From Methanoculleus taiwanensis (lineage in GTDB: Archaea > Halobacteriota > Methanomicrobia > Methanomicrobiales > Methanoculleaceae), in contig NZ_LHQS01000002.1 of NCBI RefSeq assembly GCF_004102725.1, forward strand, positions 735,984 through 799,983: a stretch of DNA of 64,000 nucleotides. The letters run 5' to 3'. Positions 53,465 through 64,000 of this stretch are shown here, one piece after another. How positions within the stretch are numbered: position 1 is the first letter of the stretch; each line of letters starts with the position of its first letter. Both the position numbers and the translations under genes were made by a program. The notes beneath the pieces are model-generated. The model saw only the letters and a program-made list of their open reading frames with translations. It did no database searches and had not been told where the DNA came from.

Positions 53465-54070
53465 TCAGCAGATGAGATCGATAAAGTTTTCAAGAAGCCG
53501 AAGCCCCACGGCCCCGCTCTTTTCAGGGTGGAACTGCACGCCGTAGGTGGTGGCGTTCCGGATGGACGAGGCGAACGGGCAGATGTACTCGGTCGACGTC
53601 AGCGTATGTTCGGGCGTGGTCGAGGCGTAGAAGGAGTGGACGAAGTAGACGTAACTCTCGGGCGGGAACCCGTCGAAGAGCGGATCGGCCGCTTCGATCC
53701 GGATGGTGTTCCAGCCCATGTGCGGCACTTTCATGCCGGGGACGGCCGGAAACCGTTTCACTTCGCCCGGCACCAGCGCCAGGCCCCGGTGGTTCCCGTG
53801 CTCCTCGCTCGAGTCCATGAGCATCTGCATCCCGAGGCAGATCCCGAGCAGCGGCACCTCTCTGCTCGAGGCGAGCACCGTGGCTTTGAGGTCGCCGAGC
53901 ATCTCCATGCCTTCGCGGAAGGCGCCGACACCGGGGAGGACGATGCCGTCCGCGGATGCTATGACCTCCGGATCGGCGGTGATCGTCGCGTCCGCTCCTG
54001 CCCGCTCAAGCCCCCGGTAAACGCTCCGGAGGTTCCCGACACCGTAATCAATTATAGCTATCTTCTTCAT
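53465..54070 (-). CDS. hisH: Imidazole glycerol phosphate synthase subunit HisH
   Basis: Glutaminase subunit that supplies ammonia to HisF for histidine biosynthesis. The 201-residue length is standard; IIDYGVGNLRSVYRGLERAG starts it, LLGICLGMQMLM holds the nucleophilic Cys and YGVQFHPEKSG the His/Glu of the triad. hisF and other his genes are not nearby. The start overlaps the PAPS-reductase-like gene by 23 bases. Confidence 0.96.
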   Translation of the reverse strand: MKKIAIIDYGVGNLRSVYRGLERAGADATITADPEVIASADGIVLPGVGAFREGMEMLGDLKATVLASSREVPLLGICLGMQMLMDSSEEHGNHRGLALVPGEVKRFPAVPGMKVPHMGWNTIRIEAADPLFDGFPPESYVYFVHSFYASTTPEHTLTSTEYICPFASSIRNATTYGVQFHPEKSGAVGLRLLENFIDLIC

Positions 54071-55457
54071 CCTGACCGCCTCTCCTGCGCCAGAGCCCGT
54101 CGTCCACCCATGCAGAGGGGAGTTCCTGGCGTTCCTGCCATCCTCGCAGGCGTTCCGTCCAGTCCGCCCAGAGATCCGGGCAGGTCTCCTCGATCATCTG
54201 CAGTGTTGCCATGTCGCTCGAGGGGCACATAAAGCAGCCGATTCTGTCAAGCCCCTGCTCATAGAGCCGGTTGTAGGGCGCCTGTTTCTGGAAGATGTAG
54301 AGCCAGACGTGCATCGCTGTCCACGTCTGGATCGGCGCTGCGGAGAGCTGGTTCCTGACGTGGCTGTTCCTCCAGACCCGCCGGCTCTGCATCCTCTTGA
54401 CCGACTCGTACTTCCGCTGGCCGATGAACGAGAGGCATTCGCCCCAGTGCTCGTCGATGAGGTGGGCGACGGGGTGGAGTTTGCAGACCTTGCAGCACCA
54501 CCGGAAGTCGACGGCAGGCGGCCCCTGCTCGTCGAAGGTCTTCCAGAAGTTTGCGGACTCGTTGATCCGGATGACCGGGAGGTCGTAGCACTCCGCGACG
54601 TCGTCGATGTTCTCGTAGGTCTCGGGGAACTCGAGCCCCGTGTCGGCGAAGATAAGGGGCACCTTCCCGATCGCCTCGAGGACGACGAGCAGCGTTGCGA
54701 GACTGTCTTTCCCGCCCGAATACGAGACGGTCGGCTGGATGGCGGGATTCTTATCGATGACGTCCCGCACGAACTCGACGGCCGATCGCTCGAACTTCTC
54801 GAGGATATCGGCGTTGGCGGCGACGGCCGTATCCCAGGTTGCCTCTCCCGGGACACAGGTCGCCGGGAAGTTCTTGCGTGTCCGGATGACCGTTCCGCGC
54901 TCCATTCCTTCGGTATCGGCAGCGCTCGCCTTCGCCCGCCCGACACCGATGCACTCGCCGCCCCGCGTGAGGATGAAGACCTCGTCGCCGACCGCGACCG
55001 CCGGGTCGATGGCGACGAGACCGGGGGCGAGGAGGCTTGCTCCTTCGTCACGGATCGAGGGGACGGCGCCGTCGTCGACGACGACGTAGCGTTTCGCCGG
55101 CGTCATGTAGGCGGCGGCATGCGGCCGGGGCAGCGGTTCCCAGCGGTCCTCGGCCGGGAGATAGCGCACGGCGCCGACGACCGCACCGCCCATGACGATC
55201 TCGTCCATCCGGTCGTCCGAGGGCACCTTGTTCAGCAGCGCCAGGTGGCCGTCGGGGATGAGGGGGGCGCCGAAGTACTCCTGGTAGATCCGGTTGATCC
55301 GGTCGATATCGTCCGGGAAGGCCGGGCGTGCATCCCCGGGCGGCGTTACGGAGACCGGCCGTGTCGCGGCGCCGCAGGCGCAGGTCTCCGCCATCACCGG
55401 TGCGTGGCAGGCGTCGCACCAGCGGAGCAGGATCTTTCCTAAATAAATGCGGGGCAT
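54048..55457 (-). CDS. PAPS reductase-like protein with zinc ribbon and PUA domain
   Basis: A 469-residue archaeal protein. The N-terminal zinc ribbon (WCDACHAPVMAETCACG) is followed by a PUA-like RNA-binding domain (RYVVVDDGAVPSIRDEGASL, GDEVFILTRGGECIGVGRA) and a PP-loop domain, YSGGKDSLATLLVVLEAIG, with LIFADTGLEFPET and two Cys clusters (CCKVC and CFMC). The PUA suggests an RNA substrate rather than free PAPS. ATG 55457 follows CAGAGGAT. It overlaps hisH by 23 bases. Confidence 0.9.
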   Translation of the reverse strand: MPRIYLGKILLRWCDACHAPVMAETCACGAATRPVSVTPPGDARPAFPDDIDRINRIYQEYFGAPLIPDGHLALLNKVPSDDRMDEIVMGGAVVGAVRYLPAEDRWEPLPRPHAAAYMTPAKRYVVVDDGAVPSIRDEGASLLAPGLVAIDPAVAVGDEVFILTRGGECIGVGRAKASAADTEGMERGTVIRTRKNFPATCVPGEATWDTAVAANADILEKFERSAVEFVRDVIDKNPAIQPTVSYSGGKDSLATLLVVLEAIGKVPLIFADTGLEFPETYENIDDVAECYDLPVIRINESANFWKTFDEQGPPAVDFRWCCKVCKLHPVAHLIDEHWGECLSFIGQRKYESVKRMQSRRVWRNSHVRNQLSAAPIQTWTAMHVWLYIFQKQAPYNRLYEQGLDRIGCFMCPSSDMATLQMIEETCPDLWADWTERLRGWQERQELPSAWVDDGLWRRRGGQDEEDSYN

Positions 55458-55922
55458 ATATCCTCTGATCTTTGGTTTCGGCGAAGATAAGTATTGGTGG
55501 CTGCGTGTATTCCTGCAGACCGGTGCCGGGGTCGGCAGGCGAATGTCCTCTCCGCCCCGATCGCCGGGATGCCCTCCCCTGTCTCCTACCGGGAGCACCC
55601 GATCTCCGGCGGTGCGGGAAAGAGTGCATCCACGCTTCCGCACCGAAAGCACGGATCCGTATTTTTCCCGGTGCGAATGCTCCGTAACCGTTCTTCACGA
55701 CGTATAAAACTTCGGAAGGGATTAATACCCCCTTCTCTAACAACAGGTTGTCGGACGAGTGCATCGCGATCTCCCGGAAACGATCGAGGGCAGACCCTCT
55801 TCGGGACGGTGTGTGGGCGATCCGACCTCAGCGGGAATGGTTTCACTGTTCTTACCACGGCCTTCAGTTCTTTCTCTCCCGCCTCTCCCCGGTAGTATCC
55901 GCTCTGGACTGGTGGATTATTC
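55458..55922. other. Intergenic region, 465 bases
   Basis: No coding frame is convincing. A TATA-like TATAAAAC near 55703-55712 lies about 215 bases before the surface protein gene, so either that mRNA has a long leader or a short RNA is made here. Confidence 0.4.
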
Positions 55923-60130: not shown

Positions 60131-62743
60131 ATGCGACGACTCCAGCCGCACGAGATTGAGTACCTGTCGAATCCGGATCAATTCACCTTTGCGTTCTTCC
60201 GCGCCCGCGTCCTCGACCCGCTCCCCGCCGCCGCCGCGCTCGGCATAGCGGACGAAGAACTGCTGAACTACTACGAAAACGCCCTCCGGCGGGACGGCCG
60301 TTTTCTGCTCAGGCTCGACCCGAACGGCGATCACTACGAGCGCCTCGAGCGGTACGTCGCCAAGACCGCCCACCTGCTCTTCTCCGGCCGGGACGCCGAC
60401 GAAGATCTCTCTGCTTTTACCCGGTTCCGCCACCAGTGCTACCGGGCGCTCCACCCGTTCACGGAGAGCCAGAAGATCGCCATCCTCAAGAAGATCTGCC
60501 TCGGGACCGGGTGCCCGCCGGAGCTCGTGGACGAGACGGCGACGCTCTTTGCGGTCGGAAGCGGCCTCTTTGCGATGGAACTCTATACCCGGCTCCGGGA
60601 TGCGGGGAGTGCCGATGCGTTCGCCGCACGGCTCGGGGAGATCGAGCTCCTTGCCGACCTCGCCGCACGGCCGACGCTCCTCTACCCCCTCTGGCCGCAC
60701 CAGCAGCAGGCGCTCGAGGCCTGGCTCCGTGCCGGCGGCAGGGGCATCCTCGAGATGGCGACGGCGACCGGGAAGACGCTCGTCGGCCTCGCCGCCGCCC
60801 TGAAACTCTACGAGGTGCACGGGCGCCTCGAGGTGCTGGTGCTCGCCCATTCCCGCGCTCTGCTGAACCAGTGGCGGCGGGAAGCCGTCCTGAAACTCGG
60901 GTTATCGGAGAGTGCCGGCGCCGACTATACGGTGCCGCTCTCCTACGCCGATCGGTTCACGATCCGGTTCGAGACGCTCCAGAAGGTCTACCGCGCCCCG
61001 CACCGCTACCCGGCCGATCTCCTGATCGTCGACGAGGTGCACCACGGTGCAGGACTTTCGTTCCGAAAAGCGCTCTCCGTCCCCGTGAGGTGGAAGATGG
61101 GTCTCTCGGCAACGGTCGAGGGGGCGGAACGCCGCCAGCCGCTCGACCGGGCTCTCGGCCCGACCGTCTATACCTTCACCCTCAAAGACGCCCGCGACCG
61201 TGCGGTTATTCCGTCGTTTTCGCTCCACCTCCATACAACCTACCTGGACGTCCGGGAGGACGAGGAGTTCCGCGAGATCTCCGAACAGATCGTCCAGGGC
61301 CTTGCCGTCATCAACGGCCGCCACCGCGAGATCGTCCGGCGGCTCTCGAACGGCCGGTTCGACCGGTTCGAGAGTCTCGCAGACTTCGTCGGCCTGATGC
61401 GGCAGCTCCGCTATCGGACCGCCGAGGTGCCGGAGGCGTGGTACCGGCTCGTCGGCCTCGTCTACCGGCGGCGCATGATCGTCCACCGGTCGGCTCCGAA
61501 GACGAGCCGGGCGATCGCCCTCGCCCGCCGCCTCGGGGCGGCGAAGAAGTGTATCGTCTTTTCGATGGATATCGCGACCTGCGACGCCATCTACACCGCT
61601 CTCAAAGATACGGTGGATGCCTACCGTGTCCACTCCGGGATGCCGCGAAACGAGGTGCAGCGCTCTCTCGACCGGTTCCGGTCGGCGCAGACCGGCATCC
61701 TGATCGCGCCGAAGATGCTTGACGAGGGTATCGACGTTCCGGATGCGGAGATCGGGATCAACGTCGCATCCTCAAAGACCCGGCTGCAGCTCGTGCAGCG
61801 CATGGGCAGAATCCTCCGGAAACGGCCGGGAAAAGAACCGATATTTCACCATTTCGTCGCCCTGCCGCAGGCCTACGTCGACGCGGAAGACGCGTTCGCC
61901 TACCAGAGCGATCTCGCCTGGATCCGGGATACCGCTCTCCTGCTGGATGTCCCGGTGCTGCAGGCGCCGTCGGTGGAGGAGGGCATCACCGACTTCTGCC
62001 GGAGAAGCGAAGCAACCGTCCGTGACTACCTCAAAAACCGGCGGTATGTTGCGACGGACGATTTCGGCACGGTGCGGGTCGATGCTATCCTCGATGCGAT
62101 CCCGGAGCGTCTCCGGCGGGAGCTCGCCGGTTCGCTCGCATCGTGCCCGGGAGACCTCACCGACGAAGCCTGGCTGGCGATGGCGAAGAGCGCCTGCCGC
62201 GCCGGCGAGGTCCCGGGTCTCTCCGGCATGCACTGGCTCCTCATCCTTGCCGGGCGCGAACCGCGGGCGCTCCGCGAGTTACTCCTGACGGGCCTCGACC
62301 CTGCTGCTCCTCAAAGACCGGTTCCGGCCGAACTCCCGGCTCCTCCCGCCCGGAGAGACGGCGGGTTGCGGCCTGTGGAGGATGCTGTCCGGGCGCTGGA
62401 ACGGGCGGCGAATCCGGAGCAGGAGTGGGCTGCCCGCCGCCGGCTCACGGAGATCGGTGCACCGGCCGTCCCCCTGCTGCTCCCTCTGCTCAGATCGCCC
62501 CGGGATGCGACGGCCGCCCGTGCCGTCGGGGTGCTGGGAGCGATCGGCGATTCGCGTGCGGTCGATCCGCTGCTCTGCAGTCTCGCCGACAGACGCCCGG
62601 ATATCCGTGCCGGGGCAGCTCTCGCGCTCGGACGGCTCGGCGATCCGCGTGCCCGGCTCTCCCTGATGCGGGCTCTGAAAGACCGCGAACCTGCCGTGCG
62701 GAAGGCCGCCCGAAAGGCGCTCGACGCGATGAAGGGCAGGTGA
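60131..62743 (+). CDS. SF2 helicase (XPB-like) fused to C-terminal HEAT repeats
   Basis: An 870-residue protein. Residues 1-185 are an unrecognised N-terminal domain (helical, charged). The helicase core has Walker A MATATGKT (209-216), Walker B VDEVHH (300-305), motif III SAT (326-328), motif V KMLDEGIDVPDAEIGI and motif VI QRMGRILRKRPG. Residues about 760-870 form at least three HEAT repeats of PBS-lyase type (APAVPLLLPLLRS, DSRAVDPLLCSLAD, DPRARLSLMRALKD). GAGAGAG precedes the ATG. It could be a DNA translocase; the HEAT end probably binds a partner. Confidence 0.9.
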   Translation: MRRLQPHEIEYLSNPDQFTFAFFRARVLDPLPAAAALGIADEELLNYYENALRRDGRFLLRLDPNGDHYERLERYVAKTAHLLFSGRDADEDLSAFTRFRHQCYRALHPFTESQKIAILKKICLGTGCPPELVDETATLFAVGSGLFAMELYTRLRDAGSADAFAARLGEIELLADLAARPTLLYPLWPHQQQALEAWLRAGGRGILEMATATGKTLVGLAAALKLYEVHGRLEVLVLAHSRALLNQWRREAVLKLGLSESAGADYTVPLSYADRFTIRFETLQKVYRAPHRYPADLLIVDEVHHGAGLSFRKALSVPVRWKMGLSATVEGAERRQPLDRALGPTVYTFTLKDARDRAVIPSFSLHLHTTYLDVREDEEFREISEQIVQGLAVINGRHREIVRRLSNGRFDRFESLADFVGLMRQLRYRTAEVPEAWYRLVGLVYRRRMIVHRSAPKTSRAIALARRLGAAKKCIVFSMDIATCDAIYTALKDTVDAYRVHSGMPRNEVQRSLDRFRSAQTGILIAPKMLDEGIDVPDAEIGINVASSKTRLQLVQRMGRILRKRPGKEPIFHHFVALPQAYVDAEDAFAYQSDLAWIRDTALLLDVPVLQAPSVEEGITDFCRRSEATVRDYLKNRRYVATDDFGTVRVDAILDAIPERLRRELAGSLASCPGDLTDEAWLAMAKSACRAGEVPGLSGMHWLLILAGREPRALRELLLTGLDPAAPQRPVPAELPAPPARRDGGLRPVEDAVRALERAANPEQEWAARRRLTEIGAPAVPLLLPLLRSPRDATAARAVGVLGAIGDSRAVDPLLCSLADRRPDIRAGAALALGRLGDPRARLSLMRALKDREPAVRKAARKALDAMKGR

Positions 62744-63556: not shown

Positions 63557-64000
63557 CTATGCCTGCCCGGTTCGTGCCACTGCCTTCGTTTCGTAGAACG
63601 GCGACGGGAGCATGGGATAAACGCGATATACGTGACGATACACATCATCTGCTCTGGACTGCACGTCGTCTTCAGTATAGTGATCCACCGGTAGGCCGGT
63701 TGATTCGCTCCAGAGGAAATCGCGGATAGTAAGTCGGACTGCATCGCGGGTGGCTTCCTTGTCACGCCAGTGATCGATGCGAAGTCTCTCCGCCTTGAGG
63801 GTTTCAAGGAGTTCGACGGCCACTTTCTTGATGCGCCGGACTTCGCCGGGCGAGAGATCAGGCCTCTTCAGAAGATCGAAAACAGCCAGCGATTCCTCAT
63901 CAAGCCCTTCACGTATAGCCCGGCTTTCTTCCCCTTCAATCGCATTCATGAATCGCAGCAAGGCCTCGAACGTATTTTCAATGGTTACTCGATCCTTCTC
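63557..64000 (-). CDS. Type I restriction enzyme subunit R (HsdR), C-terminal fragment, runs off window
   Basis: The frame is open from the window edge; the visible 147 residues begin EKDRVTIENTFEALLRFMNA and include REGLDEESLAVFDLLKRPDL, the helical C-terminal region typical of HsdR/DUF3387-type restriction subunits. The motor and nuclease domains would lie beyond 64000. An apparent start at 63961 is internal and should not be used. Its base composition is lower in GC than the core genes, which fits horizontal transfer. Whether the system is complete cannot be seen. Confidence 0.85.
   Translation of the reverse strand, partial: EKDRVTIENTFEALLRFMNAIEGEESRAIREGLDEESLAVFDLLKRPDLSPGEVRRIKKVAVELLETLKAERLRIDHWRDKEATRDAVRLTIRDFLWSESTGLPVDHYTEDDVQSRADDVYRHVYRVYPMLPSPFYETKAVARTGQA

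What the first reader, a model, noticed from the sequence alone, without database searches (positions are those of the whole stretch)
60131..62743. SF2 helicase with an unknown N-terminal domain and HEAT-repeat tail
Seen: helicase motifs I-VI are intact and followed by HEAT repeats closely resembling those of the 1406-residue HEAT protein in the same window. The gene borders an accessory region with a type I restriction gene. Inference: possible genome-defence or repair translocase whose HEAT tail docks a partner.
Basis: partly seen in the sequence, partly recalled or inferred. Interest (0 to 1): 0.55.

Follow-up and report, generated by a model that had tools for sequence, protein, structure and literature searches.

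The report
Defence-island helicase with swappable tail
This is a DNA-motor gene of an unnamed archaeal family that often turns up beside different antiviral systems, and whose repeat-built tail has been exchanged in some relatives while the motor stayed the same, which suggests the tail chooses a target or a partner.

Summary
In detail: an intact 870-codon gene with SF2 motifs, a conserved all-helical N-terminal domain and four C-terminal HEAT repeats. Its motor is nearest to archaeal XPB and to PbeA (Dnd/Pbe), but it falls far below both family cut-offs, lacks PbeA's HKD motif, and its family forms a separate clade. It is patchy (11 of 41 near genomes; 32 of 392 in the phylum). Nine of 13 HEAT-type loci, the window's included, lie near antiviral genes of largely different kinds (type I RM, viperin-like, Dnd, type III RM, DruE-like, BREX plus Wadjet, DpdA, DrmD-like, type 4 BREX); in four none was recognised. 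BrxC lies within 15 kb in 5 of 13 cases (0.18 expected), mostly in HEAT-less branches. Some relatives are operonic with UvrD or UvrD-PD-(D/E)XK proteins (four loci) or fused to UvrD (one). In one genus the HEAT tail was exchanged while the motor was kept (3 of 12 pairs; L030/L031 core dS 0.21, tail 1.77). Best reading: a mobile antiviral DNA translocase with an exchangeable recognition or docking tail and a nuclease in trans. Untested by experiment. Likeness to the window's 1406-residue HEAT protein is real but unremarkable.

The parts
60131..62743 (+). whole gene, 870 aa, SF2 helicase with HEAT tail
60131..60688 (+). N-terminal all-helical domain (residues 1-186), no family or fold assigned
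   Evidence: AlphaFold2 alone: mean pLDDT 88.8, 11 helices; no Foldseek PDB match better than E 2.4
60689..61225 (+). RecA1 motor domain (residues 187-365)
   Evidence: ResIII 187-330; XPB-like by sequence and fold
60755..60778 (+). helicase motif I / Walker A (MATATGKT, residues 209-216)
   Evidence: invariant in 13 family sequences except T213
61031..61045 (+). helicase motif II (DEVHH, residues 301-305)
   Evidence: invariant in 13 family sequences
61226..61510 (+). mainly helical segment between the two motor domains (residues 366-460)
61511..61876 (+). RecA2 motor domain (residues 461-582)
   Evidence: Helicase_C 469-564
61796..61819 (+). helicase motif VI (QRMGRILR, residues 556-563)
   Evidence: six of eight residues invariant; pattern
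61877..62302 (+). post-helicase domain (residues 583-724), unassigned; tandemly duplicated in relative L030
62303..62365 (+). low-confidence linker (residues 725-745); identity breaks down near the corresponding place in relatives with exchanged tails
   Evidence: pLDDT below 50 at 725-744
62366..62740 (+). HEAT tail, four repeats (residues 746-870)
   Evidence: HEAT_2; model; exchange in relatives
63557..64000 (-). C-terminal part of a type I restriction HsdR gene, convergent neighbour that runs off the window
   Evidence: HSDR_N, SWI2_SNF2, T1RH-like_C on L023:13540-16806

Best explanation
It is an ATP-driven, XPB-like double-stranded-DNA translocase or helicase of a distinct archaeal family that serves antiviral defence and moves between defence islands. 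Inferred mechanism: the helical N-terminal domain and the two RecA domains load on and move along DNA; the post-helicase domain and HEAT tail read out a foreign feature or hold a protein partner; DNA destruction is supplied in trans, in some relatives by a UvrD-family helicase with a PD-(D/E)XK nuclease encoded in the same operon. Shown: intact motor motifs, separate clade, patchy distribution, proximity to many different defence systems, UvrD linkage in some relatives, tail exchange in one genus. Inferred: translocation, the role of the tail, antiviral activity, and that the window's own protein has a nuclease partner at all (none is linked to it except the type I RM locus).
For: Motor motifs intact and XPB-like by sequence and fold. 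Patchy: 11 of 41, 32 of 392, 10 of 40 and 4 of 12 genomes. Defence context: PADLOC 142 families in 84 neighbour proteins against 28 in 121 control proteins; members named: type I RM (L023), viperin-like (L025), DndB and DndD (L028), type III and type I RM (L029), DruE (L030), BrxC plus JetABC (L031), DpdA plus UvrD plus PDDEXK (L032), DrmD-like plus TmtA (L076), BrxP plus BrxC (L077). BrxC within 15 kb in 5 of 13 (expected 0.18, P 1e-6); N6-MTases 5 of 82 (expected 1.12, P 0.006). UvrD-PDDEXK or UvrD in one operon in L043, L046, L080 and L082, UvrD fused in L034. Tail exchange: L030/L031 core dS 0.21, tail dS 1.77, with an abrupt fall in identity past about residue 740, not explained by a register shift. 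Other modules are attached in other branches: TPR at the N-terminus (L050, L082), HNH_repeat (L060) and DUF5797 (L066) at the C-terminus.
Against: In four of 13 HEAT-type loci (L024, L026, L027, L033) I recognised no defence neighbour. Clear tail exchange is confined to one genus and 3 of 12 pairs compared, at least two events; the window gene's own branch shows none. No UvrD partner lies beside the window gene. Tail and neighbour do not change together (L023/L024, L040/L041). Four of the five close BrxC cases are in branches without a HEAT tail. The viperin search (2 of 11 matches within 15 kb) used a query chosen because it lay beside the gene. No infection or biochemical data; proximity in a defence island does not prove function.
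Confidence: 0.55

Rival explanations
1. It is a subunit of whichever modification-restriction system it lies beside (like PbeA in Dnd/Pbe or the BrxH helicases in BREX), with the HEAT tail as the docking arm.
For: In L046 it stands on the same strand between a UvrD-nuclease gene and a small AAA gene, BrxC and PglXI; in L049 it follows, by 21 bases, a gene of the same cluster as the Eco57I-type MTase of L031; it is divergent from dnd genes in L028 and L041.
Against: Neighbouring systems differ in nearly every HEAT-type locus; loci without any recognised system keep an intact gene; L082 lies beside a BREX locus with its own PglZ and, by reading of the sequence, BrxL (L080 likewise by reading); tail likeness does not follow the neighbour (L023/L024, L040/L041).
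Confidence: 0.2
2. It is a DNA-repair helicase of the XPB kind that happens to lie in variable regions.
For: Nearest solved motors are archaeal XPB; four HEAT-type loci showed no defence neighbour that I recognised and lie, by reading, mostly among housekeeping genes.
Against: XPB model 64.6 bits against a cut-off of 610; XPB-like proteins of the same phylum form another group in the tree; found in only 32 of 392 genomes; defence enrichment.
Confidence: 0.12
3. It is a mobile passenger of islands, or serves plasmid exclusion, without any functional link to its neighbours.
For: Four haloarchaeal plasmids carry the non-HEAT branch; neighbours are very varied.
Against: Not found in phage records at E 1e-15; the 77 viral-contig loci had best segments of 35% identity or less, as any SF2 helicase would give; operonic UvrD-nuclease linkage and UvrD fusion point to a definite partner in some relatives.
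Confidence: 0.13

Closest known systems
PbeA of the Dnd-PbeABCD antiviral system (TIGR04095; PADLOC PbeA)
   Same: Best PADLOC match (192 bits): same SF2 motor type; lies in archaeal defence loci.
   Different: 141 bits against a cut-off of 600; no HKD pattern; different all-helical N-terminal domain; HEAT tail; separate group in the tree; no pbe genes recognised beside the window gene.
Archaeal XPB / Rad25 (XPB-Bax1)
   Same: Nearest solved structures for the motor by sequence (2e-17) and fold (6p4w, E 6.7e-16); a motor that is solved in complex with a nuclease (Bax1).
   Different: 64.6 bits against 610; separate group in the tree; HEAT tail and a different N-terminal region.
BREX helicases BrxHI / BrxHII
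   Same: SF2 motors inside BREX loci, as some relatives here.
   Different: BrxHII is described as Swi2/Snf2 with N-terminal TUDOR and an inactive REase, BrxHI as Ski2-like (PMC12839542, passages); PADLOC BrxHI/HII model only 36 bits.
ARMADA, Druantia and DISARM YprA-type helicases; Gabija GajB
   Same: Defence helicases of systems that recur near each other; ARMADA type II pairs SF2 helicases with a GajB-like UvrD (PMC12458937, passages).
   Different: YprA helicases carry DUF1998 (the same paper; MZB in Pfam); the window protein has no such match.

Membership tests
PbeA (dnd_restrict_1) | score over the NCBIfam cut-off of TIGR04095 | tested here: not met
   141.1 bits against 600; the PbeA-like genes of three relatives score 338-417, also below it
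PbeA (dnd_restrict_1) | HKD (PLD) nuclease domain (PMC10853773, PMC6459918, passages) | tested here: not met
   no PLD family in Pfam, no HxKxxxxD pattern
PbeA (dnd_restrict_1) | gene beside pbeBCD or the CxC ATPase and DndE | tested here: not met
   window neighbours are, by reading, ABC transporter genes and type I RM; dnd genes lie beside relatives L028 and L041
XPB DNA-repair helicase | score over the NCBIfam cut-off of NF045503 | tested here: not met
   64.6 bits against 610
XPB DNA-repair helicase | groups with XPB in a tree of the motor | tested here: not met
   50 rows of this family are one side of a 100/99 branch; 5 XPB-like rows are another group. Two of these matched the XPB model at about 399 bits, below its cut-off; three were labelled by size and reading.
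BREX BrxHII | Swi2/Snf2 motor with TUDOR and inactive REase | tested here: not met
   no SNF2 family among 11 Pfam matches; PADLOC BrxHI/HII 36 bits; TUDOR not tested by itself
SF2 helicase | two RecA domains with motifs I, II, III, VI | tested here: met
HEAT-repeat protein (PBS-lyase type) | HEAT_2 over the Pfam cut-off and helix pairs in the model | tested here: met
   55.5 bits against 27.7; model
Antiviral defence gene | lowers virus infection when expressed | not testable with these tools
   only genomic context was examined
Known fold for the N-terminal domain | significant match to a solved structure | tested here: inconclusive
   best Foldseek E 2.4; best VIA-align Z 5.3, within the range of common helical arrangements

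The most novel reading that the evidence does not exclude
An unnamed archaeal antiviral helicase family in which one conserved motor carries interchangeable recognition cassettes (HEAT in Methanomicrobiales, TPR or other modules elsewhere). The cassettes are exchanged by recombination at the linker, as specificity parts are exchanged in restriction systems, and the motor works with a UvrD-PD-(D/E)XK partner.
Probability: 0.3. Interest if true: 0.75.

Novelty: new variant of a known kind. Interest (0 to 1): 0.52.

Why it matters
Defence genes of methanogens are poorly known. If right, this names a recurring motor that libraries now file as a distant PbeA or a plain 'DEAD/DEAH box helicase', and points to a repeat tail that can be exchanged, which makes a specificity module directly testable.

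Tried and rejected
Special kinship of the tail with the 1406-residue HEAT protein: rejected, eight other places in the genome are closer. Simple register shift as the cause of tail divergence: rejected, no ungapped offset gives high identity between the L030 and L031 tails, and the one strong DNA match is 34 bases at the tail start, before the repeats. Counting L030/L032 as an exchange: dropped on recount, its tail dS is only about twice the core's and some DNA likeness remains. Tail taken from another HEAT gene of the genome: not supported, the best match of the L031 tail is still the tail of its relative in G027 (45% over 105 residues); other HEAT places match 31-46% over about 64-99 residues. 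Tail matched to the neighbouring system: not supported by L023/L024 and L040/L041. Known fold for the N-terminal domain: Foldseek and VIA-align gave nothing to lean on; a weak likeness of 92-176 to the ASC pyrin domain (Z 4.4) is within what helical bundles give by chance. Viral origin: 77 viral-contig loci, all with best segments of 35% identity or less; phage records none at E 1e-15. Papers on a HEAT-tailed or XPB-like defence helicase: the listings showed none; most subscription journals are not held.

Read: PMC10853773, PMC6459918, PMC12458937 and PMC10609329, passages only; PMC12839542, passages and section 19. Other papers in listings only. Recalled, from no call: that prokaryotic viperins and TmtA, Wadjet, Druantia, DISARM and BREX are antiviral or anti-plasmid systems beyond what PADLOC's names say, and how Bax1 works.

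Full report
What is there. Window 60131-62743 (+) holds one intact gene of 870 codons, also intact in the own genome at G000:C2:796114-798723. The genome is a methanogen close to Methanoculleus: its nearest relative G001 has a contig of the same length, with the same gene, as the titled record NZ_VCYH01000003.1, Methanoculleus sp. FWC-SCC1. Pfam finds ResIII at 187-330, Helicase_C at 469-564 and HEAT_2 in the tail. The AlphaFold2 model (33 sequences, mean pLDDT 82.8, pTM 0.67) shows a helical N-terminal domain, two RecA domains with a mainly helical insert, a post-helicase domain of lower confidence, a disordered linker at 725-744, and four HEAT helix pairs. The N-terminal domain folded alone gives 11 helices at pLDDT 88.8, without a significant match in the PDB.

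What it is related to. By sequence and by fold the motor is nearest to archaeal XPB; among defence models it is nearest to PbeA (192 bits). It belongs to neither: 141 of 600 bits for TIGR04095 and 64.6 of 610 bits for the XPB equivalog, and no HKD pattern. In a tree of 59 motor domains, 50 members of this family are one side of a branch with 100/99 support; 4 PbeA-like and 5 XPB-like rows form groups of their own. The tool warns that the joins of long branches are unsure. The labels rest on model matches below the curated cut-offs (TIGR04095 338-417 bits for three PbeA-like rows; XPB model about 399 bits for two rows) and on size and context for the other four. Profile scores show the same gap: complete members 360 bits or more, the next proteins 135 or less, fragments L071 and L073 at 252 and 124. 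Three of four plasmid records call the gene 'DEAD/DEAH box helicase family protein', the fourth 'hypothetical protein'.

Distribution. 11 of 41 near genomes, 32 of 392 genomes of the phylum at E 1e-40 (30 matches in 28 genomes exceed 430 bits, the other six are weak or partial), 10 of 40 in the family, 4 of 12 in the family of G032. The scan of genome contigs gave 39 loci; all but four bear euryarchaeal titles, and one of the four (L074) is PbeA-like rather than a member. G032 and G030 carry two copies. The gene is thus not needed by most relatives and is probably mobile; four haloarchaeal plasmids carry it, phage records do not at E 1e-15.

Neighbours. I fetched 20 kb around 13 HEAT-type genes (12 genomes, the window's included) and scanned the 84 proteins of at least 180 aa within 5 kb of the gene against PADLOC, with 121 proteins of 13 windows of the same 12 genomes as control. 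At E 1e-20 the first set hit 142 families, the control 28; 25 of each were shown. None of the 25 control families shown is a restriction endonuclease, BrxC, Dnd, Jet or Dru model, though methyltransferase, Cas12f-like, Csx1, mad3, DpdF, HerA and candidate PDC models occur; mad3 is as common there (5 of 121) as beside the helicase (3 of 84). Named members: HsdR (L023, the window), viperin-like (L025; PDB viperin E 1.2e-33), DndB and DndD (L028), type III and type I restriction enzymes (L029), DruE (L030) with a viperin-like gene 6.6 kb off, BrxC and JetA/B/C (L031), DpdA with a GajB-like UvrD and a PD-(D/E)XK protein (L032), DrmD-like and TmtA (L076), BrxP and BrxC (L077). DpdA, TmtA, the L077 BrxC and the L030 viperin-like gene lie outside the 5-kb rule and were looked at on their own. 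So 9 of 13 loci. In L024, L026, L027 and L033 I recognised none; L026 and L027 share the location of L025 but lack the viperin-like pair. Over 32 genomes, BrxC genes lie within 15 kb of the helicase in 5 of 13 cases (0.18 expected, Poisson P 1e-6) and N6-methyltransferases in 5 of 82 (1.12 expected, P 0.006). Four of the five BrxC cases are in branches without a HEAT tail. The test treats genes as independent, which defence islands are not. Viperin-like genes lie within 15 kb in 2 of 11 cases, with a query chosen because it lay there.

A recurring partner in some relatives. In L046, L080 and L082 a 1019-1022 aa UvrD protein with PDDEXK_1 nuclease precedes the helicase on the same strand (gaps of 86 and 87 bases, and a 4-base overlap); the first two are checked by Pfam, the third by its 1548 bits to the L080 protein. 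In L043, a HEAT-type relative, a UvrD protein, cut by the contig end, follows after 31 bases. In L034 the helicase is fused to a UvrD helicase. L040 has a UvrD-PDDEXK plus PDDEXK pair 2.7 kb away, and L032 a split pair 1.4 kb away on the other strand, which the nuclease gene brings closer. The scan covered 62 loci with the helicase (some places are held twice) and 14 control windows; the controls gave no hit. The window gene itself has no such neighbour.

The tail. Among 12 gene pairs, dN is higher in the HEAT tail than in the motor in all 12; the pairs share genes. In nine pairs tail dS is 0.7 to 2.6 times core dS. In three (L030/L031, L031/L032, L076/L077), all from one genus, it is about 5 to 10 times: L030/L031 have core dS 0.21 and dN 0.027, tail dS 1.77 and dN 0.565 (dS above 1 is near saturation). 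DNA identity of L030/L031 runs at 77-100% per 20 codons through the motor and falls to 42-65% past residue 744. No register shift restores it. L030 also has a tandem duplicate of the post-helicase domain. The tail was thus replaced, or the core was exchanged under it, by recombination near the linker, at least twice. The window gene and its near relatives show no such exchange. In other branches other modules sit at the ends: TPR at the N-terminus (L050, L082), HNH_repeat (L060) and DUF5797 (L066) at the C-terminus, and CxxC starts that look like zinc ribbons (L034, L049, L052, L054; read). In the tree, HEAT-bearing L033 lies outside the two main HEAT groups, near HEAT-less rows, so one gain with losses and several gains are both possible.

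Mechanism proposed. Shown: intact motor, clade, context, partner in some relatives, tail exchange in one genus. Inferred: an ATP-driven dsDNA translocase that recognises foreign DNA or a virus-made structure through, or with the help of, its tail, and hands DNA to a nuclease. The tail as an arm for the neighbouring system is less likely, since L023/L024 and L040/L041 keep similar tails (70-87% and 67-80% per 40-residue block from about residue 720 on) beside different neighbours; of L040 only 2.7 kb upstream is held. Why the family sits beside so many systems remains open: it may be a stand-alone defence gene collected in islands, or a helper used by several systems.

Comparison with print. 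PbeA is described as an HKD DNase fused to an SF2 helicase (PMC10853773, PMC6459918, passages). The BREX survey says that BrxL is often replaced by distinct helicases in types 5 and 6 and describes BrxHII as Swi2/Snf2 (PMC12839542, passages and section 19); its text does not contain 'XPB' or 'PbeA'. The haloarchaeal BREX-linked members here may be among those helicases; I could not check, as supplementary files were not open to me. No listing of my searches named a HEAT-tailed helicase of this kind.

Verdict. It is a new variant of a known kind, a defence-associated SF2 helicase, with an unusual exchangeable tail; its function remains to be tested.

Noticed in passing
own genome, L023:16803-20000 (window 66820 onward, beyond the window end): The type I RM locus next door carries a nested ABC-three-component set: DUF2326/CTD10 ATPase, Middle Component 6 and a weak HNH_2 protein, between HsdR and a Methylase_S gene.
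   Followed up: partly
L025:5623-8269, L044:4838-7511 (and L048, the same place as L025): A viperin-like radical SAM gene with a divergent 555-566 aa partner of unknown kind lies beside the helicase, 33 bases from its end in L025 and 2.4 kb from it in L044; a viperin-like gene also lies 6.6 kb off in L030.
   Followed up: partly
L028:10001-19000 and L041:1-9850: dnd genes divergent from the helicase: DndB and DndD checked in L028, DndC and a cysteine desulfurase by reading; L041 shares the clusters. A PbeA-like gene (417 bits) and, by reading, a PbeC-like gene follow in L036.
   Followed up: partly
L061, L062, L064, L065, L075: A 477-aa calcineurin-like phosphoesterase and a 215-aa protein of no Pfam family (both checked in L061) recur between the BREX genes and the haloarchaeal helicase.
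   Followed up: no
L205 and L206 (haloarchaeal plasmids): Helicases of about 1600 aa (the like-sized relative L060 has an HNH_repeat tail) stand near ADP-ribosylglycohydrolase genes, in L205 also near VWA and HEAT-repeat genes.
   Followed up: no
window 54048-55652 (-): PAPS-reductase-like gene that matches part of the BrxP model (E 9.8e-49); by reading perhaps a general methanogen gene, not a BREX part.
   Followed up: no
L030:7706-10720 (-): The 1004-aa relative holds a tandem duplication of the post-helicase domain before its HEAT tail.
   Followed up: partly
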